A stretch of 64,000 nucleotides of DNA from contig JABAQM010000001.1 of NCBI GenBank assembly GCA_019187105.1, positions 992,001 to 1,056,000 of the forward strand, written 5' to 3'. The position numbers were made by a program, and so were the translations under genes. The notes under the pieces are model-generated. The model was not told the DNA's origin, ran no database searches, and was given only the letters and a program-made list of their open reading frames with translations. The stretch is from Fimbriimonadaceae bacterium (GTDB lineage: Bacteria > Armatimonadota > Fimbriimonadia > Fimbriimonadales > Fimbriimonadaceae). Below, in pieces: positions 5,740-34,000 of this stretch; within the stretch, counting starts at the first letter, position 1; each line of letters opens with the position of its first letter.

Positions 5740-6657
5740 ATGGGAATGGATCCCCACGTACCCCAGGATGGCCATATCGAGCCGCATGACTACCCAGAGT
5801 CACGCGCACCTTTTGTCAAGCTCTTGCTCAGCACCGCCGTGCAAGTTGCAGCAGCGCTCTTCGTTTTGCGCTGGCTAGCTCCCGACCTTTGGCAGGGCGA
5901 GTGGAAGAACCCTTGGGGAATCGCCATGTGGACCGTTCTGCTGGGCGTCCCGATGAGCTTGTTCGAGTACATCTACCACCGGTACCTGCTTCATTCGGCC
6001 CTTCTTCCTTTTCTCGGTTCGATGCATGATGCCCACCGAACGCACCATGGGCTCACCTCGGTCAAAGCGCCAGTTACGCAGAAGGAGCCTGAAAAGATGG
6101 TGCCTGTCCACAGCGAGTACGCGGTGGAAGAAGAGCATCAGGAAGAGTCGATGACGTTCCCGCTCTACGCGATCTCAATTTTCATCCCGCTCTTCCTCGT
6201 GCTGTTCGCCCTGCCGCTCAAGCTGATCTTCCCCGGGCAGCCGATCGTGGTCGGATGCATTTTCAATACCACGCTTGCCTACCTTGGCTATGAGTTGTGG
6301 CACCAGGTTCTGCACTTGCCGTTCGAGCGCTATTGGGCGCCGCTTTTCAACCGGCCGGGCGTGGGTCCGATTGTTCGGCGAACCTACGGTTTCCATCTGA
6401 TGCACCATTGGCGGCCGACCGCGAACTTGGCGGTGGTCGGGCTCTGGGGTTTCGCGGTCTGGGATCACATCTTTGGAACCTATGCCCTACCCGAGCGCCT
6501 GCCGCTTCACCGGGCAAAGGTCAATTACTACGATGCCGAGTTGCGGAAGCCTCGCTGGCCCATCTCGATGATCGACAAGGTCCAGGGACCCATCTATCGA
6601 GGAAGCCGTTCCATCGAGAATTGGCTCGCCCGTTTGGTCGGACTGCGACGCGACTGA
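5740..6657 (+). CDS. fatty acid hydroxylase / sterol desaturase-like membrane protein
   Basis: A 305-residue integral membrane di-iron enzyme of the fatty acid hydroxylase superfamily, acting on a lipid or carotenoid. Histidine clusters are visible at HRYLLH, HDAHRTHH, a later HQVLH, and HLMHHWRP, the typical spaced metal ligands. Hydrophobic segments lie near residues 27-45, 60-75 and 140-185. The C-terminus is soluble. Start ATG at 5740; no obvious Shine-Dalgarno. It is convergent with the rtcA-like gene, only 4 bases apart. The exact substrate is unknown. Confidence 0.82.
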   Translation: MGMDPHVPQDGHIEPHDYPESRAPFVKLLLSTAVQVAAALFVLRWLAPDLWQGEWKNPWGIAMWTVLLGVPMSLFEYIYHRYLLHSALLPFLGSMHDAHRTHHGLTSVKAPVTQKEPEKMVPVHSEYAVEEEHQEESMTFPLYAISIFIPLFLVLFALPLKLIFPGQPIVVGCIFNTTLAYLGYELWHQVLHLPFERYWAPLFNRPGVGPIVRRTYGFHLMHHWRPTANLAVVGLWGFAVWDHIFGTYALPERLPLHRAKVNYYDAELRKPRWPISMIDKVQGPIYRGSRSIENWLARLVGLRRD

Positions 6658-6661
6658 CGGC

Positions 6662-7735
6662 TCAGGCTTCGTCTTTGTGAATCGTCAGTTCTCCGGGCTG
6701 GCCTTCTTCACCGCGGAGGGTCAGGTGGATCGGCATAAACTGCTTGGCTACCCAGAGCATCGTTTTCAGTCGCCGAGTGACTTCGGAAGTCTTGATTTTT
6801 GTGGAGCCTTCGGCGCAGATGGCGGGCAGCAGCATCTGGTCAACGACAAACGAGTCAACGGTGGCCGGCGTCTGCATCCACTCCATCAACCGATCGAATC
6901 CGGTCTGGACGAGGGTCTCGATACGGACGCCCCGGGCGCCCATGATGGTCGCGCCACCCACCGCGTTTTGGTAACTGGCCCATAGCGTCAGGTGAACTCC
7001 CGACGATCTGGACTCGACGGGAATCGTCTCGGTCTCCAGCTCGATTCCGGCCGATTTTGCCAAGCGGCCCGCGTGATCAAGACCACGCTCGATGATTGGG
7101 GCCCCCAGCCCCGAATAGGCGAACAACGCATGAACCGCCAACAAGGAGCCTCGGTCAGTCCACCGCAGCGGGTGGGTCATACTTGGCTCGATTTCGAGAC
7201 AGACCTCCCCCTGGGCGGCAAAACCAAACCCGGCCATAGGCTGGGTGGAGGAAGCGTACAGACCCTGGCGTCGCCATGCTGCCAACGTCACCCGCTCGAA
7301 ATAGTCATATGTCAGGGCATTGGTATTGTACGTTTCCCCGACGACTGCCACCGACGAGAGGCCGCCCGATCGAGCAAGGATGGGCGCTACCGACGTCGCC
7401 ACGACCAGCGCATTGCCTGGTACTTGGCCCTCCTCGTGGTCGGCGATCCGCAGAGCCAAATGCCTCGGATGGGGCCGGTGGCGTGGCGCGAACTCCACCA
7501 CGACCGCATTGACCTTATCCCCTTCGGTGTCGGCATCCACGATCTGTTGGAGCCCTTTCAGAACGGTGAGGTCTTCGCTGGTGAGCCCAGGTTTTCGGGT
7601 AGCGCCGCGGACCGTCTCAATGCGAACGGGCTGCTGCGTCAGGCAGGACATTTGCAGAGCGGTCCGAACCAAGGCACTGCCACCCTCCCCATAGGATCCA
7701 TTGATCACGACCGGGGAGCTGGTCTTGCTAGCCAC
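6662..7735 (-). CDS. RNA 3'-terminal phosphate cyclase-like protein lacking the catalytic His
   Basis: A 357-residue member of the RtcA/Rcl1 family. The N-terminus INGSYGEGGSALVRTALQMS matches the family signature DGxxGEGGGQxxRxALxLS, and KPGLTSEDLTVLKGL and VVDQMLLPA are further family blocks. RtcA converts RNA 3'-phosphate to 2',3'-cyclic phosphate through a covalent His-AMP (His309 in E. coli). In my hand alignment the residue in that position, about 322, is Arg (TRRLKTMLWVAKQFMP), so adenylylation is doubtful. GTG start at 7735, overlapping by one base (TAGTG) the stop of the upstream membrane-protein gene, so the two are coupled. Enzymatic RtcA with a shifted nucleophile is the alternative. 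Confidence 0.82.
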   Translation of the reverse strand: MASKTSSPVVINGSYGEGGSALVRTALQMSCLTQQPVRIETVRGATRKPGLTSEDLTVLKGLQQIVDADTEGDKVNAVVVEFAPRHRPHPRHLALRIADHEEGQVPGNALVVATSVAPILARSGGLSSVAVVGETYNTNALTYDYFERVTLAAWRRQGLYASSTQPMAGFGFAAQGEVCLEIEPSMTHPLRWTDRGSLLAVHALFAYSGLGAPIIERGLDHAGRLAKSAGIELETETIPVESRSSGVHLTLWASYQNAVGGATIMGARGVRIETLVQTGFDRLMEWMQTPATVDSFVVDQMLLPAICAEGSTKIKTSEVTRRLKTMLWVAKQFMPIHLTLRGEEGQPGELTIHKDEA

Positions 7736-8826
7736 TACACTTTCGCCTTAAAGAACAGGTACTCGAGAAACCGCATCAGGTAGGCGAAGATGATAACGAG
7801 CAAGCAGACGAGGAGAATCTCGTGGAAGGGCAACACGCTGTTTTGGGCTTGCTGCTGCAGTGAGCCACCCTTTTCGCTGTAGGTCGCGGTGCTGAGGACC
7901 TTGTCGACTGCGCCGATCGCGCCGGACAGCCAGGCAAGCAAGGAGGTGCGGCCGACGGCATAGACAGCCACCAGGCTCAGGATGACCAGGGGCAAGGCGA
8001 GCTTGTACTTGTGCTTCTGGTGCTCGTTGTAGATAACGCACACCCGGCACCGCTCCTTCTTCATTTCCTCGGTCAGCTTGTTGTTGCGCGGAATGTACTT
8101 GGCGGCAGCGACCAGGTCGGCGGGGATCACCTTGCCGGACATCGCATTCTGGATAACGGATTCCTCACACATACACCCCACCCGCTCCTTCCAGCAGGTG
8201 CGGCGGGCATGGTAGATCGGGCATTTCTCACGGACGAATTTGCGGCAGAACGGCAACTGCCAGCATTTGCCCATGAAGATGTTGTGGATCTCCTTCTCTT
8301 GCTTGACGCCCTTGCCGTACTTGAGCTGATCGGCCTTGGATCCCTCTTGGACCCTTTCCCTGACCCGTCGAATGAGGTCGATGACGATGACGATGAGGGC
8401 GATCGTCCCCAACACGAGGCCGCAGTTTCTGAGAATCTCGAAGGCTCTTTCGGTAACCGCATTGGTCTGCGAGGAACCGAAGATCGATGGCACGTAGAGT
8501 GACGAGAGGTAGAGAGCGGCGGCGCCCATGAACAGGAGCGCACCGAGGATTTCCTCCTCCCAGAAGAGGAAGCACGCGCCGAGTGCGCAGGCCGCCGAGC
8601 CCGCCATTGCCAGGGTGCTGAACGAGTCGAGATTGGCGAGGGCTCGTTTGTTGTCCGGCTGCATGCCGATGCCGGCGAAGACGTTGTAGTTGTAGAGGAC
8701 AAACCCGATGCCGACGAGAGCTGCCAGCAAGCCGCCGAAGAACAGGAAGCGGGCAACCGTTTCCAAGAACCGCGCGACCGGCTCTTCCGAGTTAGTTATG
8801 GTGTATCGATCCTGCAGCTTGGACAT
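7735..8826 (-). CDS. membrane protein with eight-cysteine cytoplasmic cluster
   Basis: A 363-residue protein with hydrophobic segments near residues 23-50, 70-88, 93-112, 134-151, 278-300 and 334-352. Between the fourth and fifth segments is a soluble region of about 125 residues holding cysteines 188, 194, 202, 211, 218, 220, 260 and 263. The arrangement CW-C-CP-CW-GCMC recalls the small two-CW cysteine motif, and the final CRVC pair could complete two four-cysteine metal sites. It probably binds iron-sulfur or zinc. It lies between efp and the rtcA-like gene, coupled to the latter. No named function. Confidence 0.75.
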   Translation of the reverse strand: MSKLQDRYTITNSEEPVARFLETVARFLFFGGLLAALVGIGFVLYNYNVFAGIGMQPDNKRALANLDSFSTLAMAGSAACALGACFLFWEEEILGALLFMGAAALYLSSLYVPSIFGSSQTNAVTERAFEILRNCGLVLGTIALIVIVIDLIRRVRERVQEGSKADQLKYGKGVKQEKEIHNIFMGKCWQLPFCRKFVREKCPIYHARRTCWKERVGCMCEESVIQNAMSGKVIPADLVAAAKYIPRNNKLTEEMKKERCRVCVIYNEHQKHKYKLALPLVILSLVAVYAVGRTSLLAWLSGAIGAVDKVLSTATYSEKGGSLQQQAQNSVLPFHEILLVCLLVIIFAYLMRFLEYLFFKAKV

Positions 8827-8843
8827 GGAGGGCAGCCCCCGAA

Positions 8844-9413
8844 CTACTTTCTGTTGACGCGCTCGAGGTACGTATCGGTTCGTGTATCAATCTTGATGAC
8901 ATCCCCGACCTTGAGGTGGAACGGCACGAGCACGACTGCGCCAGTCTCCAGTGTCGCCGGCTTGGTGCTTCCGCTTACGGTGTCTCCCTTGAAGCCTGGA
9001 TCAGTTTCCGTGATCTCAAGCTCCACAAACGGTGGCAAGTCGTATCCGAGGACCTCGCCGTTCACGTCGAGTGCGACGACTTCGGCCTCCTCCTTGAGGT
9101 ACTTGGCGCCTTCTCCGAGGTGCGTCGCCGGTACCTGGTTCTGTTCGTACGAGTCCAGATCCATCAGCACGAGTTCGTCGCCTTGGCGATAAAGAAATTG
9201 CATTTTCTTCTTTTCGACAAAGGCGGCATCGAACTTCTCGCCTGATCGGAAGGTTTTTTCCAGGACGGCGCCGGTTTTCATTTTCTTCAGCCTGGTGCGG
9301 ACAAAGGCGCCGCCTTTTCCAGGTTTAACGTGCTGAAATTCTACAATTTGATAGACATCGCCATCAATGAAGATGGCCATTCCATTCTTAAAATCGCTGG
9401 TATCGACTGCCAC
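8844..9413 (-). CDS. efp: translation elongation factor P
   Basis: Relieves ribosome stalling at polyproline stretches by binding between the P and E sites. The length of 189 residues and three-domain layout are standard. The domain I loop HVKPGKGGAFVRTRLKK carries the lysine that is usually modified (tip KPGKGG); domain III ends VGDVIKIDTRTDTYLERVNRK, the family signature. GTG start at 9413, preceded by AGAGGG. A membrane protein and the rtcA-like gene follow on the same strand. Confidence 0.96.
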   Translation of the reverse strand: MAVDTSDFKNGMAIFIDGDVYQIVEFQHVKPGKGGAFVRTRLKKMKTGAVLEKTFRSGEKFDAAFVEKKKMQFLYRQGDELVLMDLDSYEQNQVPATHLGEGAKYLKEEAEVVALDVNGEVLGYDLPPFVELEITETDPGFKGDTVSGSTKPATLETGAVVLVPFHLKVGDVIKIDTRTDTYLERVNRK

Positions 9414-24539: not shown

Positions 24540-26210
<1,671 letters not shown>

Positions 26211-26220
26211 GCGCGAGATT

Positions 26221-26249
26221 GGTCTTATAGGACTTATAGGACCTATAAT
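26221..26249. repeat. 9-bp repeat cluster, copy A
   Basis: Tandem CTTATAGGA units within GGTCTTATAGGACTTATAGG and then ACCTATAATG. Essentially identical to the cluster inside the four-helix-bundle gene at 30357-30384. Confidence 0.8.
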
Positions 26250-26365
26250 GAGGCATCAAAGTGGAGCCCCTGATCCGGTATCAGGGGCTTCAGCCTTCAG
26301 ATGGTGGATATCTAGTCTTTGCGACGGAACGTGCGCTCTTAACCCGCCACTATCTGGCTAAGAAA
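26250..26365 (+). pseudogene. decayed relic of a four-helix-bundle protein gene
   Basis: In one frame this reads EPLIRYQGL, then a degraded stretch, then RHYLAKKSRTV. It corresponds to EPLIRPHGGYQGL and TRLYLDKKSRTV in the intact gene at 29987-30556, and the same 9-bp repeat precedes both. The rest of the gene is missing. The region also forms a perfect hairpin, AGCCCCTGAT/ATCAGGGGCT (26265-26289), created by loss of the bases between the arms in the intact copy. That hairpin could now help end groEL transcription, although no T-run follows. Confidence 0.7.
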
Positions 26366-26396
26366 AGTCGGACCGTCGCGCCCCTTCCTCCTGGCG

Positions 26397-27833
26397 TTAA
26401 GAACTATCAACTATCACATGCGTTTCACGCGAACAACAGCCTTTAGCTCTTTGACGGGCGATGAGAGAGCCCTGTAGATGGTAAAGGCGAAGAGTGTCCC
26501 CCAGATTAAACCGGTAGGCCGTGCAGTGTCCAGGTCCCTCCAGTGGCTTCTTCCGGGCCTCCCATGGACATCCACCCATACAAAGAGGTTGGACCTGACA
26601 TGTCTGGCACTCGGAGTGGACAAAGGGGTCGTAGTCTTGCCAGGCTTTCCTGTTCAACAACATCTGACGTTCTGTATCTCGCAGTTCAGCGGGTCTAAGT
26701 AGATTCTCTCGTCGCTCATGCTTGTGGAGATACCCGGAAGCATGGCTTGCGTCCATCGCTGTCTCGTTCCAACACTTGAAGTTCAGCCCGCCTGGGGCAA
26801 ACACCGCTCCGCTCGGGTTGTCAGCAATACAAAGGTTACCGCGAAGGGGCTTGGGCAAGGACGTCTTCTGATTGAAGCCAAGTCGAAAGAGTGCAAGTCG
26901 CGCTTGCGCCTGTACTGAGGCAAACTCAGCCTTGGTCAGCGCATGCGGCTCCGCATCCGCACTAGCCTCAGTGTATGCAAGCACATGGCCCAAATCTACG
27001 AACACGTGTTCTCTTAAGCCACTCTCTGCTAGTTGCAACAGGAGGTCTGGAATTCGTTCGTAGTTACGCCTGTCAACGTTTACCCTGACAACTAGAGGCA
27101 GTCGTCCGGCCGCCCGCTTAAGGTTACAGAGGATCTTGTCGAAAGTTCCCTGTCCCCCAGCCCGCAACCTGCGCGCGTCATGGATGTCCTTCGGGCCATC
27201 CAAGGTGACTTGTATGCTGGTCAGGTCACCGAACGAGGCAATTAGGCTGATAGCTTCTTCGCGCAGCAAGAGCCCATTGCTGATAAAGTGATGAGAGTAG
27301 CGACATGCCCTATCTCTAGCGAGCTCTCGAAGCTCTCCAGCGAGTTCCATGACTTGAGCCAATTCCAGTAAGGGCTCACCTCCGAACCAGGTTACTCCCA
27401 GATATGTGCCCTTGTGCAGGTTACAATCAACGTGTTTTAGGATATGCATCCTATCTACCTCGGACATACGCCTATCCGGGTGCTCCTGGAAGCAGTACGT
27501 ACATCGTAGGTTGCAGGCGACGGTCGGCGCAATCGTGAGAGCTAGACCCCTCTTCGTTTTCGGAGCCTTCTTCCAATATCGCTTTCGAACCTCCAGGCGC
27601 TCATCGACTGCTTGGTCTACGACAAAGCCGCTTTTTGCCAGAAGCTTAATATTTTCCGATGCTCGCCGGGGTAACTGGCCGGTCCGTTTAACATGCTCTA
27701 ATGCTATTGTTAACTGCTGAAACTCTTCCACTGACATTGCAGCGAACCTACCTGTAAAAGTATTGAACGCCAGGACACTTTCTTGGCAAAAAGAACGCGT
27801 GAAGAAGTTGAATTCTGAGGTCTTCAGTGGCAT
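26397..27833 (-). CDS. radical SAM/SPASM peptide maturase
   Basis: A 478-residue enzyme. The radical SAM cluster motif is CNLRCTYC (Cys107, 111, 114) and WFGGEPLLE follows at about 149-157, contacting SAM. The C-terminus carries a complete SPASM signature for two auxiliary iron-sulfur clusters: Cys335-x13-G-x4-Cys354, then Cys409-x2-Cys412-x5-Cys418-x3-Cys422, then Cys437. The first 95 residues (NTFTGRFAAMSVEEFQQL and the following helices) resemble the N-terminal part of known RiPP maturases. It starts 7 bases after the stop of an eight-cysteine protein gene, its probable substrate; thioether or related cross-links are likely. GC content is near 50 percent, well below the neighbours. Confidence 0.88.
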   Translation of the reverse strand: MPLKTSEFNFFTRSFCQESVLAFNTFTGRFAAMSVEEFQQLTIALEHVKRTGQLPRRASENIKLLAKSGFVVDQAVDERLEVRKRYWKKAPKTKRGLALTIAPTVACNLRCTYCFQEHPDRRMSEVDRMHILKHVDCNLHKGTYLGVTWFGGEPLLELAQVMELAGELRELARDRACRYSHHFISNGLLLREEAISLIASFGDLTSIQVTLDGPKDIHDARRLRAGGQGTFDKILCNLKRAAGRLPLVVRVNVDRRNYERIPDLLLQLAESGLREHVFVDLGHVLAYTEASADAEPHALTKAEFASVQAQARLALFRLGFNQKTSLPKPLRGNLCIADNPSGAVFAPGGLNFKCWNETAMDASHASGYLHKHERRENLLRPAELRDTERQMLLNRKAWQDYDPFVHSECQTCQVQPLCMGGCPWEARKKPLEGPGHCTAYRFNLGDTLRLYHLQGSLIARQRAKGCCSRETHVIVDSS

Positions 27834-27840
27834 GAGCAGT

Positions 27841-28353
27841 CTATTGTTTCCTCATACGAATGCGAATGTCCACAGGTGCCACGGGAACAGTCTGCTGAAG
27901 CGCTTCCAGCACCTCTTGCCGAACGGTCATCCATTCTTCAGTTTCGAATAGCTGAGACTGGTCAATCAGGTTCGCATCCGAAGTGTTGTAGCCGTTGCAG
28001 TGGTGAATGTCGTTGCACTCGTTTGTATCACAGGTCTGCCCCCTACACCCTTCTACATTGCAACTATCTCCATCGTCACCGCTACAATAGTGAGGGTCGC
28101 AGCTTTTATTTGCGCCGCAAACACTGTTGTCCAATTGATCGAGGATATCCGTCAAAGATCCGTCTAAGACCTGCTGCGCCAATTCGGGCATGCGGTCAAT
28201 TAGGACGCCAACAACCTGCTGAACCTGCTCAGGCTCGAGGTTTGTGTGAGTGTCGAGATAGTCGTCAAGCTCCTTAGCGACGTAGACCGATCCTACGCCC
28301 GACATAGACTTTACGAGCGCGGACCGGTCGGTCTTGGGTTTCGAGGTTCGCAT
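27841..28353 (-). CDS. candidate cysteine-rich RiPP precursor
   Basis: A 170-residue protein (from the ATG at 28353). Residues 1-78 form a helical, acidic leader-like part; residues 79-119 hold eight cysteines with spacing C-x5-C-x4-C-x7-C-x4-C-x4-C-x4-C-x5-C, interspersed with Asp, Asn, Gly and Thr; residues 120-170 are a cysteine-free tail ending VDIRIRMRKQ. No zinc or iron-sulfur family fits the near-regular five-residue period. Its position directly before a SPASM radical SAM gene suggests a ranthipeptide- or sactipeptide-like precursor. The start is supported by TATAGT 6 nt upstream; an ATG at 28407 would give 188 residues. A metal-binding protein is the alternative. Confidence 0.72.
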   Translation of the reverse strand: MRTSKPKTDRSALVKSMSGVGSVYVAKELDDYLDTHTNLEPEQVQQVVGVLIDRMPELAQQVLDGSLTDILDQLDNSVCGANKSCDPHYCSGDDGDSCNVEGCRGQTCDTNECNDIHHCNGYNTSDANLIDQSQLFETEEWMTVRQEVLEALQQTVPVAPVDIRIRMRKQ

Positions 28354-28359
28354 GCCGAT

Positions 28360-28388
28360 ACTATACAGCAGATTTGTGAACGTTCTAA
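28360..28388 (-). promoter_or_regulatory. promoter of the RiPP-like operon
   Basis: On the minus strand, TTAGAA (28383-28388), a 17-base spacer and TATAGT (28360-28365), then six bases to the ATG of the precursor. The message would be leaderless and should include the radical SAM gene. Confidence 0.55.
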
Positions 28389-28451
28389 CACTTTTCTTGG
28401 AAATCATTGGTGGTTTGTTCTCCCCACCTCCTTGTAACGGCGGACGGGTGG

Positions 28452-28476
28452 CCCGGGTTCGTGAAGCTAACCCGGG
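28452..28476. terminator. hairpin between zinc-ribbon gene and RiPP-like operon
   Basis: Perfect arms CCCGGGTT and AACCCGGG with a nine-base loop, 41 bases past the stop of the zinc-ribbon gene. No T-run follows on either strand, so termination is only likely. Confidence 0.4.
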
Positions 28477-28516
28477 TGCCGGTGGCGTTACGATTCTAAA
28501 CGCATCGCCTCCTCTT

Positions 28517-28747
28517 TCAAGGCAACTCCCAGCAAATCCACGCCTTGCCGCCGCTTTTGCGACCGCCTTCGACGTATGCTTCCGACTTCCCACACTTCGG
28601 GCACGGTCGTCGCCCGCCGTGCATGTTCGGCGCGCCGCTCACCAGGTAGACCTTGCCACACTCAGGGCATGTGAAAGCAGCATTGTTGCCCTCCCAGTCT
28701 TCATGACTTTCTAAGGAATCAGGATTGACTAGGCGCTCTTTCATCAT
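28517..28747 (-). CDS. small double zinc-ribbon protein
   Basis: A 76-residue protein with two CxxC pairs, CPECGK and CPKCGK, separated by about 22 residues (VYLVSGAPNMHGGRRP), the layout of a treble-clef or ribbon zinc site. The C-terminus is basic, glycine-rich and aromatic (GGRKSGGKAWICWELP). Its start overlaps the end of the two-TM gene (ATGATGA), so the two are translated together. No specific family is recognised; a nucleic-acid-binding or adaptor role is possible. Confidence 0.72.
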   Translation of the reverse strand: MMKERLVNPDSLESHEDWEGNNAAFTCPECGKVYLVSGAPNMHGGRRPCPKCGKSEAYVEGGRKSGGKAWICWELP

Positions 28748-29241
28748 TTTCCTCCACTAGCAGGCTTCGGCTGCTGCCCTTCGGCCAGGGCTTCGGCCAT
28801 GATTTGCGACCACTTGACGTGCAAGTCGTCCAGCGCTTCGGTCAGGCGCACCGCGAGGCGTTTGTCCCGGTCCCCATTGTCGTAAGGCGGACAGCTGGAA
28901 TCATAAAGATTCATTTCCTTTTCGAGCGCACTGGCCGTGGCGCGATACATGATCCAGTTGTCGTGAAACTTGAAAATTCGCTTCAGGCCTTGCGAGACCG
29001 CAATCGCGACACCTAGCAGGGGTACAGCGACCTCCGCCGCCTGCTTACCAAGGAGGATCGGCAGGACGCCCGTAGCCGCCACGATAGCGCCGGCACATAA
29101 GATCGTGATCTCGAAGAAGAAGTACCACCTCCTGTTCCTCTTCGAATATGAAGACATGTTCCAGTAGCTCAGCTGGAGCTTTTGCCGCGGAGGTTTCGGA
29201 TCAATCGGCAAGGCTGCTTCAGGGTGCATGCTTGCCGTCAT
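28744..29241 (-). CDS. SLATT/DUF4231-like two-transmembrane protein
   Basis: A 165-residue protein with two membrane helices (about residues 40-63 and 68-86) flanked by cytoplasmic helices. The start of the first helix, SYSKRNRRWYFFFEI, and the block after the second, FKFHDNWIMYRATASALEKEM, match what I recall of DUF4231 and the SLATT family, where the segment reads roughly W-x2-YR-x-TAEALK-x-E. SLATT proteins are predicted pore-forming effectors in nucleotide-signal conflict systems, but no SMODS, SLOG or nucleotidyltransferase gene is adjacent. It is the first gene of a two-gene unit with the zinc-ribbon protein. Confidence 0.75.
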   Translation of the reverse strand: MTASMHPEAALPIDPKPPRQKLQLSYWNMSSYSKRNRRWYFFFEITILCAGAIVAATGVLPILLGKQAAEVAVPLLGVAIAVSQGLKRIFKFHDNWIMYRATASALEKEMNLYDSSCPPYDNGDRDKRLAVRLTEALDDLHVKWSQIMAEALAEGQQPKPASGGK

Positions 29242-29960: not shown

Positions 29961-29989
29961 GACCTATAAGTCACAAAGGACCTATAATG
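29958..29989. repeat. 9-bp repeat cluster, copy B
   Basis: GGACCTATAAG then GGACCTATAATG, directly before the four-helix-bundle gene. It corresponds in position to copy A before the relic gene at 26250. Confidence 0.7.
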
Positions 29990-30556
29990 GGGATCATGAA
30001 AGAGGAGCCCTTGATCCGGCCGCATGGCGGGTATCAGGGGCTTCATGCTTTTCAAATGGCGGAGATCGTCTTCGACGGAACTTGCGCTTTCACCCGCCTT
30101 TACCTCGATAAGAAGAGCCGCACGGTTGACCAGATGGTGCAGACAGCGCGCAGCGGCAAACAGAACATCGCCGAAGGCAGCATGGCTTCGGGCACTTCGA
30201 AGAGAATCGAATTAAAATTGGTCGGTGTTGCGCGTGCGAGTCTTGAAGAGTTGAAGGTCGACTTTGAGGACTTTTTAAGGCTCTCCAGCGAAGAACCCTG
30301 GCCCAAGGACCACGAGAAAGCCGTCTTTGTCCGCCGGTTGTGCTACAGGAAGAATAGGTCTTATAGGACTTATAGGACCTATATTGAGGAGAAGGGCTCC
30401 ATCAACGCGGCAAACACGATGCTTTGCCTGGTTCACCAGACTAACTTCCTGCTTGACAAGCTGCTTCGGCAGTTGGATAAGGACTTCATGCAGGAAGGTG
30501 GCTTCACCGAGCGCATGCACCGCATGCGAAGCTCCAATCGAGATCGAGAAGGATAG
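29987..30556 (+). CDS. four-helix-bundle protein (S23/IVS family) with inserted 9-bp repeats
   Basis: A 189-residue protein of the four-helix-bundle family related to the intervening-sequence protein of 23S rRNA and to Avd of diversity-generating retroelements. Family blocks are FTRLYLDKKSRTVDQMVQTA, SGKQNIAEGS and the YRKNR/LLDKLLRQLDKDF region. Residues about 125-133 (SYRTYRTYI) are encoded by a perfect 9-bp repeat cluster, so the repeat is in frame and lengthens the loop before the last helix. Start ATG at 29987 or 29996. Whether it acts on RNA is unknown. A truncated relic of the same gene lies beside groEL. Confidence 0.85.
   Translation: MGIMKEEPLIRPHGGYQGLHAFQMAEIVFDGTCAFTRLYLDKKSRTVDQMVQTARSGKQNIAEGSMASGTSKRIELKLVGVARASLEELKVDFEDFLRLSSEEPWPKDHEKAVFVRRLCYRKNRSYRTYRTYIEEKGSINAANTMLCLVHQTNFLLDKLLRQLDKDFMQEGGFTERMHRMRSSNRDREG
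30357..30384. repeat. 9-bp repeat cluster, copy C, inside the four-helix-bundle gene
   Basis: GGTCTTATAGGACTTATAGG followed by ACCTATA, the same as copy A, encoding tandem Tyr-Arg-Thr units. Confidence 0.85.
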
Positions 30557-30591: not shown

Positions 30592-30593
30592 CC

Positions 30594-30772
30594 CTAAGGC
30601 TCGGGACCGATCGGCGTCACCGACAGCGTCGATTCCCAGGCTCGCGACCCTGCGTGGCGGCCACCATCCGCTTTCTGGGAATGTCCAGCCGGATATCGAT
30701 CACCGCCGTACGTGGCAAGCCGCTGCCAAAGCGCGTCCAATGAGCCCCGTCATCCATCGTCCGGTACGGCCC
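30594..30772 (-). pseudogene. duplicated 3' fragment of the BNR-repeat protein gene
   Basis: About 180 bases matching the 3' end of the BNR gene at 31911-32090 at roughly 90 percent identity by eye, same orientation and same stop codon. Two blocks are exact for about 57 and 41 bases. A one-base difference in a C/G run shifts the frame. It has no start or signal peptide and directly abuts repeat copy D. It is a non-functional fragment, useful as evidence of duplication in this island. Confidence 0.8.
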
Positions 30773-31744: not shown

Positions 31745-31910
31745 CTGAATCTCCTTTATCGAGCGAACAGTTCCGCCCGGATGACTCTATGGTACTCGGG
31801 GCCCCTCAAAGCGCAATGTCGTCATTTCGTGCTCTACGCGCCGCGAGGGCGTGGTCTAGAAGGGGCTGCACACGCTCAAAGAATCTCACGCCCTTGAGAC
31901 CGACGAAAGC

Positions 31911-34000
31911 CTAAGGCTCCGGCCCGATGGACACCAGCGACAGCGTCGATTCCCAGGCCCCGCGACCCTGCGTGGCGGCCACCATCCGCTTTCTGGGAAT
32001 GTCCAGCCGGATATCGATTACCGCCGTACGTGGCAAGCCGCTGCCAAAGCGCGTCCAATGCAGCCCATCGTCCATCGTCCGATACACCCCATCGTCCGTG
32101 CCGGCGAAGATCATCTGCTTTCCACCGACCTTGGCGACTGCGATGACGTTCACCGGGATGTCCGGCAGGTTTCCGTCCAACGTCGTCCACGACGAGCCAC
32201 CGTTCTTGGTTCGGCGGATCTGGTTGACGCCAAAGTTTGAAACCGCCACGTAGACGATCTGGTCGTTGCTCGGGTCGATCGTGATCTCGCGGGTGACGCG
32301 CGGCCAGCCAGGAATGCCGGTGAGCACTTTCGTGAAGGTGGCGCCGCCGTCGGTCGAGCGCGAGATGTTCCCGTCGTTGGTGGCCAGCCAGACGACATTC
32401 GGGTTGGTTTTCGCGATGGCAAGCGCCCGGATCGACCCGCCGCCATTGGAGACGTCGCCACTGATCGCGGTCCAAGACGAGCCCCCGTTCAGCGACCGGT
32501 AAACGCGGTAGGTACCGAGGAGGACGCGGCTCGAGTTCGTTGGGTCAACCTCGATCGGGGAGAAGAATGCGTTCCGATCGCCCCCGTTGATCCCGGAGCT
32601 CGAGCTGTTCCACGTGCTTCCGCTATTGGTGGACCGGTAGATGTTGCCTGAGCCTTGGAACTGGGCAAACCGGACGGCAGGGTTTAGCTGGTCGATGTGG
32701 GTGTAGCCGCCGTCGCCGCCGATATGGTTCGACCAGTTCAGGGTGTTGCCGTTCCTTTGGACGGTTCCGTTGTCCTGCAATCCGCCGAGAACGGTCGTGC
32801 CGTCGGCGGGGCTGATGGATACGCCTGCGTAGAACTGGGTCGTCCCCAGTCCCGTGTTCTGGTTCAGCCACGTTGAGCCGTTGTTCGTAGACCGGTAAAC
32901 GCCCCCGTCGCAGCCAATCCAAAGCCTGCCGCTTGCGTCCCAGGCGATGGCGTGGTTGTCCACGTGCTGCGTCGTGATCGTGGAGAACGAGGAGCCTCCA
33001 TTGGTCGTTCTCAAGAGGTCGAGGCCGGCAAAGAGGGCCGTGTCGGCGTTTGTTGGATGGACCCCGACCGCGCAGAGAAACCAGCCGTAGGTGGACTGGA
33101 AGCTACCAACCGGGAGCGATGTCCACGACGTCCCGCCATTCGTCGACTTGAATCCGCCGAGAGTCGTTCCATTGTTGCCGCTTGCGGAGCACTGGTTGAC
33201 AAAGAGGGCGTAGACTCGGCTCGCGTTGGAAGGAGCCGTTGCGACCGAGATTCGCCCGACGTTCGAGGTCGGCAGACCGCCACCAAGCTTGACCCACGAG
33301 GCGCCGGAGTCTGTGGATTTGTAGATGCCGTTCGAGGTCGAGCCAAACGGACGGCCGATGGCGGCGAAGAGGGTGCTCGGACTGGTGGTCACCATGGCGA
33401 TATCGGTCGCCGCTTCGCTAGGCAGACCGTTGGTTAGCTGCGTCCAGCTCACGCCGCCGTCGGTCGACTTGAAGACACCGTACGGGCCACCCTTTTGGGG
33501 ATGTCCCTTGGCCGCAGCGAGTTCGGGAAAGCCACCGGCGGCGGCGATCGAAGCGTAGAGGACCTGTGTGTCCTGGGGGTTGATGACGATTTTGGAAAAG
33601 GTTCGGCCGGCGAAGGTGTTCTGGCCAAGCAAGCTCCAAGTCGCCCCGCTGTCGGTGGACTTCAACAGGCCCACACCGTACCGGCTGTGGTTCGCATAGT
33701 TGGCCTCGCCGGTTCCCACATACACCACGCTGTCGTTGGTGGGGTCCACGGCAATCGCGCCACCGCGCTGGTCGGCGCCGCGTCGGTGAGAACGGTCCAC
33801 GTGGCGCCGCCGTCCGTCGTCCGCCACACTCCGCCGTCAGCCCCTCCGACATAGACCTTGTTCGCGTCTGTCGCGCTGCACGCGACCGCAGAGACCCGGC
33901 CGTTGAATCCGCCCGAAATCGGGGACGGTCCCAGTTCCTTCCAGGTCTGGGCCAAGGCAAAGGACGGGACCAGCAACAAGGCGAAGGCAAAGCGCTTCAT
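31911..34000 (-). pseudogene. exported BNR-repeat (sortilin/GH74-like) propeller protein, frameshifted
   Basis: A secreted beta-propeller of about 695 residues with BNR or Asp-box repeats (SxDxGxTW type: STDSGATWSLLG, STNNGSTWLNQN, SLNGGSSWTAIS). The N-terminal reading (from ATG 34000) begins MKRFAFALLLVPSFALAQ, a signal peptide, and runs into TDAAPTSAVARLPWTPP; the continuing frame reads GGAIAVDPTNDSVVYVG about 33760-33790, so one base appears lost between them. Either a real frameshift or a sequencing error. It resembles sortilin Vps10 and GH74-type propellers without clear catalytic residues. Its 3' end is duplicated at 30594. Its start overlaps the stop of the upstream gene. Confidence 0.8.

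What the first reader, a model, noticed from the sequence alone, without database searches (positions are those of the whole stretch)
26397..28388. Candidate RiPP system: eight-cysteine precursor with SPASM radical SAM maturase
A 170-residue protein with eight cysteines in 41 residues (positions 79-119, near-regular C-x4-C spacing) is followed after 7 bases by a radical SAM enzyme with a complete CxxxCxxC motif and a full seven-Cys SPASM signature. Family knowledge: such pairs make sactipeptides or ranthipeptides. The precursor is unusually long, with a 78-residue leader-like part and a 50-residue cysteine-free tail after the core, which fits no class I recognise. The pair is about 50 percent GC in a 60 percent background. 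No protease or transporter is visible next to it.
Basis: partly seen in the sequence, partly recalled or inferred. Interest (0 to 1): 0.85.

Follow-up and report, generated by a model that had tools for sequence, protein, structure and literature searches.

The report
Long-precursor cysteine-repeat peptide and maturase
A bacterium carries a two-gene cassette encoding a protein with a belt of regularly spaced cysteines and the iron-sulfur enzyme that most likely staples those cysteines; it resembles a named but, as far as I could find, chemically uncharacterised peptide family, except that here the cysteine belt sits in the middle of a long protein.

Summary
On the minus strand, 27841-28353 (170 aa; 188 aa if translation starts at the better-supported ATG at 28407) encodes eight Cys in 41 residues. 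Seven bases downstream lies a 478-aa radical SAM/SPASM enzyme (26397-27833) with intact CxxxCxxC, all seven SPASM cysteines and a predicted N-terminal RRE-like fold. Its best structural match is CteB, a thioether-forming maturase.

The pair is best read as a RiPP-type cassette in the Clo7bot/TIGR04463/Cef ("Cys-every-fifth") maturase group. It passes no family cut-off there. The core shares the C-x-x-[DENQH] register of genuine CefA peptides. "Fits no class" is only partly right: three maturases about 31-33% identical, from unrelated genomes, also sit beside long precursors (209-258 aa) whose Cys core is followed by a 53-54 aa Cys-free tail (51 aa here). None of the four has the short M-x-[FWY]-[IL]-x-x-P leader of ordinary relatives.

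I propose that the enzyme makes several Cys thioethers in the core, guided by the tail or helical leader. Absence from 84 relatives, lower GC and a truncated neighbouring gene suggest lateral acquisition. Thioether chemistry and product processing are inferred, not shown.

The parts
27841..28407 (-). Precursor protein, probable full ORF (188 aa plus stop); the 170-aa reading starts at the ATG ending at 28353
   Evidence: ORF and start context; weak NF038108 CefA match, 14.9-15.2 bits against a cut-off of 30
27997..28119 (-). Cys core: 8 Cys in 41 residues, gaps 5,4,7,4,4,4,5; C-x-x-[DENQH] in 6 of 7 gaps
27844..27996 (-). 51-aa Cys-free C-terminal tail, candidate follower; long helix predicted at low confidence
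   Evidence: tail length 51 against 54, 53 and 54 in three related loci; low-confidence AF2 model
28120..28407 (-). Leader-like N-terminal part (96 aa in the 188-aa reading), mostly helical in a low-confidence model; lacks the canonical M-x-[FWY]-[IL]-x-x-P leader and a Tat motif
26397..27833 (-). Radical SAM/SPASM maturase, 478 aa: RRE-like residues 1-90, CxxxCxxC at 107-114, seven SPASM Cys at 335-437
28493..28520 (-). Sigma-70-like promoter TTGAAA-16-TAGAAT upstream of the precursor (10 of 12 matches; consensus scan only, two sites found against 1.3 expected)
26238..26376 (+). Truncated copy of the four-helix-bundle-like gene at 29987-30556, ending about 20 bp from the maturase stop: probable recombination scar at the cassette edge
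   Evidence: 74% identity to 29977-30126

Best explanation
The two genes form a laterally acquired RiPP-type modification cassette. P0002 is a radical SAM/SPASM peptide maturase of the Clo7bot/TIGR04463/Cef group. It binds the long precursor P0001 through its N-terminal RRE-like domain, uses the SAM-bound 4Fe-4S cluster to make a 5'-deoxyadenosyl radical, and with its auxiliary clusters joins core Cys thiols to nearby residues as thioethers; the residue three positions after each Cys (D/E/N/Q/H) is the best candidate acceptor. Recognition most likely uses the C-terminal tail or the helical leader, because the short canonical leader of ordinary relatives is missing. Shown by computation: the pair, intact motifs, the RRE-like fold, partnership conserved in related maturases, and the periodic core register. 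Inferred: thioether chemistry, acceptor position, recognition element, processing and biological role.
For: Intact motifs invariant in relatives. P0002 model pLDDT 85.7 with N-terminal b-b-b-b-a-a-b-a order; top PDB matches CteB 5WHY/5WGG aligned along nearly the whole chain. Best NCBIfam profiles are all Cys-rich-peptide maturases: Clo7bot 224 bits, TIGR04463 224, CefB 171. The tree puts P0002 among maturases paired with Cys-rich peptides. Precursor genes lie beside homologous maturases: P0003/P0006 overlapping by 4 nt, L199 15 nt, L185 130 nt. C-x-x-[DENQH]: P0001 6/7 (p 0.038), P0003 6/8 (p 0.019), true CefA P0005 9/10 (p 4e-6), Clo7bot 11/19 (p 0.008). An annotated CefA/TIGR04463 pair shows that a long CefA protein (679 aa) is accepted by annotators as such.
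Against: P0001 is under the CefA cut-off (15 against 30 bits) and P0002 is under every maturase cut-off. The P0001 leader does not align with those of P0003, L199 or L185 (shuffle p 0.58-0.83); its tail is at best marginal (p 0.06 with L185). Tree support around P0002 is weak (39/89 and 86/65). Close maturases in a small phylum (L002, L183, L184) lie between ATP-grasp genes with no Cys peptide found, so this maturase group is not tied to Cys peptides alone. The C-x-x-[DENQH] p-values are post hoc.
Confidence: 0.68

Rival explanations
1. The product is not a cleaved small peptide but a stable full-length protein: the Cys belt is an internal loop stapled by thioethers, as QhpD staples the gamma subunit of quinohemoprotein amine dehydrogenase.
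For: Long helical flanks (low confidence). Relatives L185, L136 and L199 carry Tat-like RR motifs near the N-terminus, which would suit export of an already folded product; Tat profile matches for L185 and L136 are below cut-off. CefA of Methylomagnum is fused to ricin-type lectin and beta/gamma-crystallin domains. No protease or transporter gene in the immediate neighbours scanned.
Against: P0001 itself has no Tat motif; the model of P0001 is unreliable (pLDDT 44.5); proteases may be encoded elsewhere in the genome.
Confidence: 0.25
2. Sactipeptide-type chemistry: Cys sulfur joined to backbone alpha-carbons.
For: Same enzyme superfamily; SkfB is among the matches.
Against: Best sequence and fold matches are CteB (a Cys-Thr gamma-carbon ranthipeptide maturase according to the review PMC8172795) rather than SkfB; polar residues at i+3 are more in keeping with side-chain acceptors such as PapB's Asp/Glu (PMC9413430).
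Confidence: 0.1
3. P0001 is an ordinary metal-binding Cys protein, and the radical SAM gene is an unrelated neighbour.
For: Eight Cys with several Asp and His could bind metal. Cys density alone occurs by chance. The upstream 76-aa gene resembles zinc ribbons.
Against: Cys spacing is not CxxC-like; no PDB or Pfam metal-binding match; related maturases have analogous Cys partners directly adjacent.
Confidence: 0.08
4. The 170/188-aa ORF is not a real gene and the true substrate is elsewhere.
For: No detectable full-length homologue; single-sequence fold is poor.
Against: Seven-base spacing to the maturase on the same strand, long open frame with a plausible start, and analogous gene order in relatives. 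A scan of 23-33 kb for a canonical leader with a Cys core found none.
Confidence: 0.04

Closest known systems
Cys-every-fifth RiPP CefA (NF038108) with CefB (NF038107) or TIGR04463 maturases
   Same: Five-residue Cys period for much of the core, C-x-x-[DENQH] register, adjacent SPASM maturase of the same superfamily; some CefA proteins are also long (679 aa in Methylomagnum)
   Different: Below all cut-offs; no M-x-[FWY]-[IL]-x-x-P leader; core central with a 51-aa tail instead of C-terminal; spacing less regular and residues between Cys more charged
Clo7bot peptides with ctpM maturase (TIGR04334)
   Same: Top NCBIfam profile for P0002 (224 bits); same enzyme layout; shared KGCC near the C-terminus with the Paraclostridium enzyme
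   Different: Clo7bot peptides are 41-53 aa with MKFIKKP-type leaders, often several per locus, mostly C-x3-C
SCIFF/thermocellin ranthipeptides (CteA/CteB)
   Same: CteB is the top fold match, with an RRE and SPASM
   Different: SCIFF core is in a short conserved C-terminal stretch; P0002 scores 69 bits against a cut-off of 425
Freyrasin PapA/PapB
   Same: Several Cys-to-side-chain thioethers in one repeated core are the model for the proposed chemistry (PMC9413430)
   Different: PapA uses CX3D/E; here D/E stands at i+4 in only 2 of 7 gaps; P0002 scores 98 bits against 340
Long-precursor pairs in L135 (Geobacteraceae MAG), L185 (G350) and L199 (G918)
   Same: Maturases 31-33% identical to P0002, precursors 209-258 aa, Cys core followed by a 53-54 aa Cys-free tail, no canonical leader
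   Different: Precursor flanks do not align convincingly with P0001; Tat-like RR motif in L185 and L199; different Cys spacing

Membership tests
Radical SAM/SPASM RiPP maturase | CxxxCxxC cluster motif | tested here: met
   C107, C111 and C114 invariant in 24 sequences
Radical SAM/SPASM RiPP maturase | Seven-Cys SPASM pattern | tested here: met
   C335, C354, C409, C412, C418, C422, C437; the Pfam SPASM profile itself did not match
Radical SAM/SPASM RiPP maturase | N-terminal RRE | tested here: met
   Predicted b-b-b-b-a-a-b-a at residues 1-90 with good pLDDT, aligned with CteB along nearly the whole chain; peptide binding not tested
CefA NF038108 | Curated score of at least 30 bits | tested here: not met
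   14.9-15.2 bits
CefA NF038108 | Cys at every fifth position | tested here: inconclusive
   4 of 7 gaps are exactly 4; the others are 5, 7 and 5
CefA / Clo7bot group | N-terminal M-x-[FWY]-[IL]-x-x-P leader (motif derived here from 19 relatives) | tested here: not met
   Present in all 19 (the pattern was written from them), absent from P0001 and from 23-33 kb of the window in combination with a Cys core
CefB NF038107 | Curated score of at least 600 bits | tested here: not met
   170.6 bits; note that P0004, next to a CefA over cut-off, scores only 235
TIGR04463 maturase | Curated score of at least 525 bits | tested here: not met
   223.9 bits
Clo7bot maturase TIGR04334 | Curated score of at least 600 bits | tested here: not met
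   224.3 bits
PapB-type ranthipeptide | CX3D/E core motifs and at least 340 bits | tested here: not met
   D/E at i+4 in 2 of 7 gaps; 98 bits
SCIFF ranthipeptide | TIGR03974 score of at least 425 bits | tested here: not met
   69 bits
Ranthipeptide (chemical class) | Cys sulfur to beta- or gamma-carbon thioether | not testable with these tools
   Needs MS/MS and NMR
Sactipeptide (chemical class) | Cys sulfur to alpha-carbon thioether | not testable with these tools
   Needs MS/MS and NMR

The most novel reading that the evidence does not exclude
A distinct subgroup of Cys-repeat radical SAM systems in which the maturase recognises a C-terminal follower of about 50 residues and the product is a full-length protein with an internal, multiply thioether-stapled belt, in some relatives exported by Tat after modification, rather than a cleaved small peptide.
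Probability: 0.2. Interest if true: 0.75.

Novelty: new variant of a known kind. Interest (0 to 1): 0.5.

Why it matters
The Clo7bot/TIGR04463/Cef maturases are known mainly as curated profiles; I found no biochemical study of them in the paper library, which does not cover subscription journals. A compact two-gene example with a testable C-x-x-polar register and a candidate C-terminal recognition element makes two questions directly testable: which residue accepts the Cys sulfur in this group, and whether a SPASM maturase can be directed by a follower instead of a leader. It also gives a search rule (SPASM maturase beside a 170-260 aa ORF with a Cys core about 50 residues from its end) for precursors that tools tuned to short peptides may miss.

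Tried and rejected
Homologues of P0001 by sequence: none in 84 family genomes or in plasmids. PDB and Pfam for P0001: nothing significant. AF2 of P0001 alone: pLDDT 44.5, so no fold search was made with it. Hairpin upstream of the precursor as a riboswitch or regulator: rejected; no Rfam match, fold z-score only -1.5, and the palindrome is a dispersed repeat of the genome. Cys density as evidence by itself: rejected. Leader homology between P0001 and other long precursors: not significant. DUF4231 gene or 76-aa zinc-ribbon gene as RiPP parts: no evidence; the DUF4231 gene is also found in this genome only within the family. L002-type systems as precursor-bearing relatives: no Cys peptide found, though contigs are short. 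Viral contigs: related radical SAM genes, none a close relative.

Full report
What is there. The window lies in a 3.3-Mb genome (G000). On its minus strand, 27841-28353 encodes the 170-aa Cys-rich protein P0001, and 26397-27833 the 478-aa enzyme P0002, with 7 bases between them. An upstream ATG at 28407 has the better Shine-Dalgarno context and would give 188 aa. A promoter-like site lies at 28520-28493, but the scan finds about as many sites as chance would give. Upstream on the same strand are a 76-aa zinc-ribbon-like gene (28517-28747) and a DUF4231 gene (28744-29241); downstream, groEL on the other strand ends at 26210.

Is the Cys pattern more than chance? Density alone is not: two other six-frame segments of the window also reach 8 Cys in 41 residues. 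Regular spacing is, with the caveat that the tests were chosen after seeing the data: random placement gives at least four gaps of exactly 4 with P 0.0015 and all gaps between 4 and 7 with P 0.00017. The setting next to a maturase is the stronger argument.

The enzyme. P0002 has CxxxCxxC at 107-114 and seven SPASM Cys at 335-437, invariant or nearly so in relatives. The AF2 model with 24 sequences reaches pLDDT 85.7 and shows an RRE-like N-terminus. The best PDB fold matches are CteB 5WHY and 5WGG, aligned along nearly the whole chain, ahead of anSMEcpe, ChlB, SuiB, TigE and SkfB; by sequence too CteB leads. Among NCBIfam profiles the best are Clo7bot (224 bits), TIGR04463 (224) and CefB (171), all far below cut-off.

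Relatives and partners. The nearest maturases found are only about 30-33% identical. P0006 (L135, Geobacteraceae MAG; 33%, 221 bits) overlaps by 4 nt a 258-aa protein whose core is C-x4-C seven times over, followed by 54 Cys-free residues. L138/L185 (G350) has a 225-aa protein with five Cys and a 53-aa tail. L199 (G918) has a 209-aa protein with two Cys clusters and a 54-aa tail, 15 nt from the maturase. P0001's tail is 51 aa. Pairwise tail comparisons give shuffle p of 0.0125 (P0003-L199), 0.0275 (L199-L185) and 0.06 (P0001-L185); leaders show nothing. So the layout is shared, while sequence homology of P0001 to the others is unproven. Trees place P0002 among maturases of Clo7bot, TIGR04463 and CefA systems, with weak local support.

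Ordinary members differ. Clo7bot peptides, Thermococcus CefA P0005, and many Acidobacteriota-phylum peptides begin with M-x-[FWY]-[IL]-x-x-P or a close variant; the pattern written from 19 of them is absent from P0001 and from P0003, L185 and L199. CefA of Methylomagnum keeps that leader yet is 679 aa, with ricin-lectin and crystallin domains before the repeats, and sits beside a TIGR04463 maturase.

A shared core register. The third residue after each Cys is D, E, N, Q or H in 6 of 7 gaps of P0001 (p 0.038), 6 of 8 of P0003 (p 0.019), 9 of 10 of P0005 (p 4e-6), 4 of 5 of the second Thermococcus peptide (p 0.006) and 11 of 19 distinct Clo7bot gaps (p 0.008). In Clo7bot, where gap length varies, the register holds counted from the preceding Cys and not from the next one (4 of 19). 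The residue set was chosen after inspection. I read this as the likely acceptor position. PapB, the characterised comparison, joins Cys to Asp or Glu in CX3D/E (PMC9413430), that is at i+4, so the proposed register is different.

Origin. No relative of the pair was found in the other 84 genomes of the family beyond generic radical SAM matches; the DUF4231 gene is likewise found only here. GC is 52-53% against 59.5%. A truncated copy of the four-helix-bundle-like gene at 29987-30556 ends about 20 bp from the maturase stop. Together these suggest lateral acquisition; they do not prove it.

Mechanism and confidence. Most likely (0.68) P0002 installs several thioethers in the P0001 core after RRE-guided recognition. 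Motifs, RRE-like fold, gene pairing and core register are computed results; thioether chemistry, the i+3 acceptor, the recognising segment and the fate of the product are inference. The absence of a protease or transporter in the immediate neighbours may mean that they are encoded elsewhere, or that the product stays a full-length protein. The second is favoured by Tat-like motifs in three relatives (L185, L199 and the more distant L136), weakly, since two score below the Tat profile cut-off and P0001 has none.

Verdict. A real pair and a new variant of a known kind: it works like the Cef/Clo7bot systems but meets no family cut-off and lacks their leader. Interest 0.5.

Noticed in passing
L161:1380-2315 and L161:4803-6212 (same in L162): IMG/VR phage contig: a Tail_P2_I tail protein carries a C-terminal Cys-rich extension of about 75 residues, about 2.5 kb from a radical SAM gene; possible radical SAM modification of a phage tail protein.
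   Followed up: partly
L158:7171-8481 and 8488-9201 (same in L160): Phage contig with a radical SAM/SPASM gene directly followed by a 237-aa CxxxC-repeat protein (phrog_6085, unknown function).
   Followed up: partly
L136:4885-5499 and 6131-8410: Same phylum as the window: a 204-aa protein with a Tat-like motif and 20 Cys, then a pilin-like gene, then a 759-aa radical SAM/SPASM protein with a long C-terminal part of unknown family.
   Followed up: partly
L183:2140-5352; L184:665-3877; L002: Small phylum with an ATP-grasp, radical SAM/SPASM, ATP-grasp operon whose maturase is Clo7bot-like but with no Cys-rich peptide found nearby.
   Followed up: partly
window 28405-28500 and about a dozen other places in G000: Dispersed palindromic repeat (ACCCGGGTTAGCTTCACGAACCCGGG), REP-like, also near both ends of contig C1.
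   Followed up: partly
window 26238-26376 and 29977-30126: Truncated duplicate of a four-helix-bundle-like gene beside the maturase; a further short shared stretch at 26218-26253 and 30354-30389.
   Followed up: partly
window 30593-30767 and 31910-32085: A 176-bp direct repeat at 91% identity; the 31910-32085 copy overlaps the 3' end of a BNR-like ORF.
   Followed up: no
L163:822-6335: Methylomagnum plasmid: 679-aa CefA with lectin and crystallin domains, TIGR04463 maturase and an annotated radical SAM C-methyltransferase in a row.
   Followed up: partly
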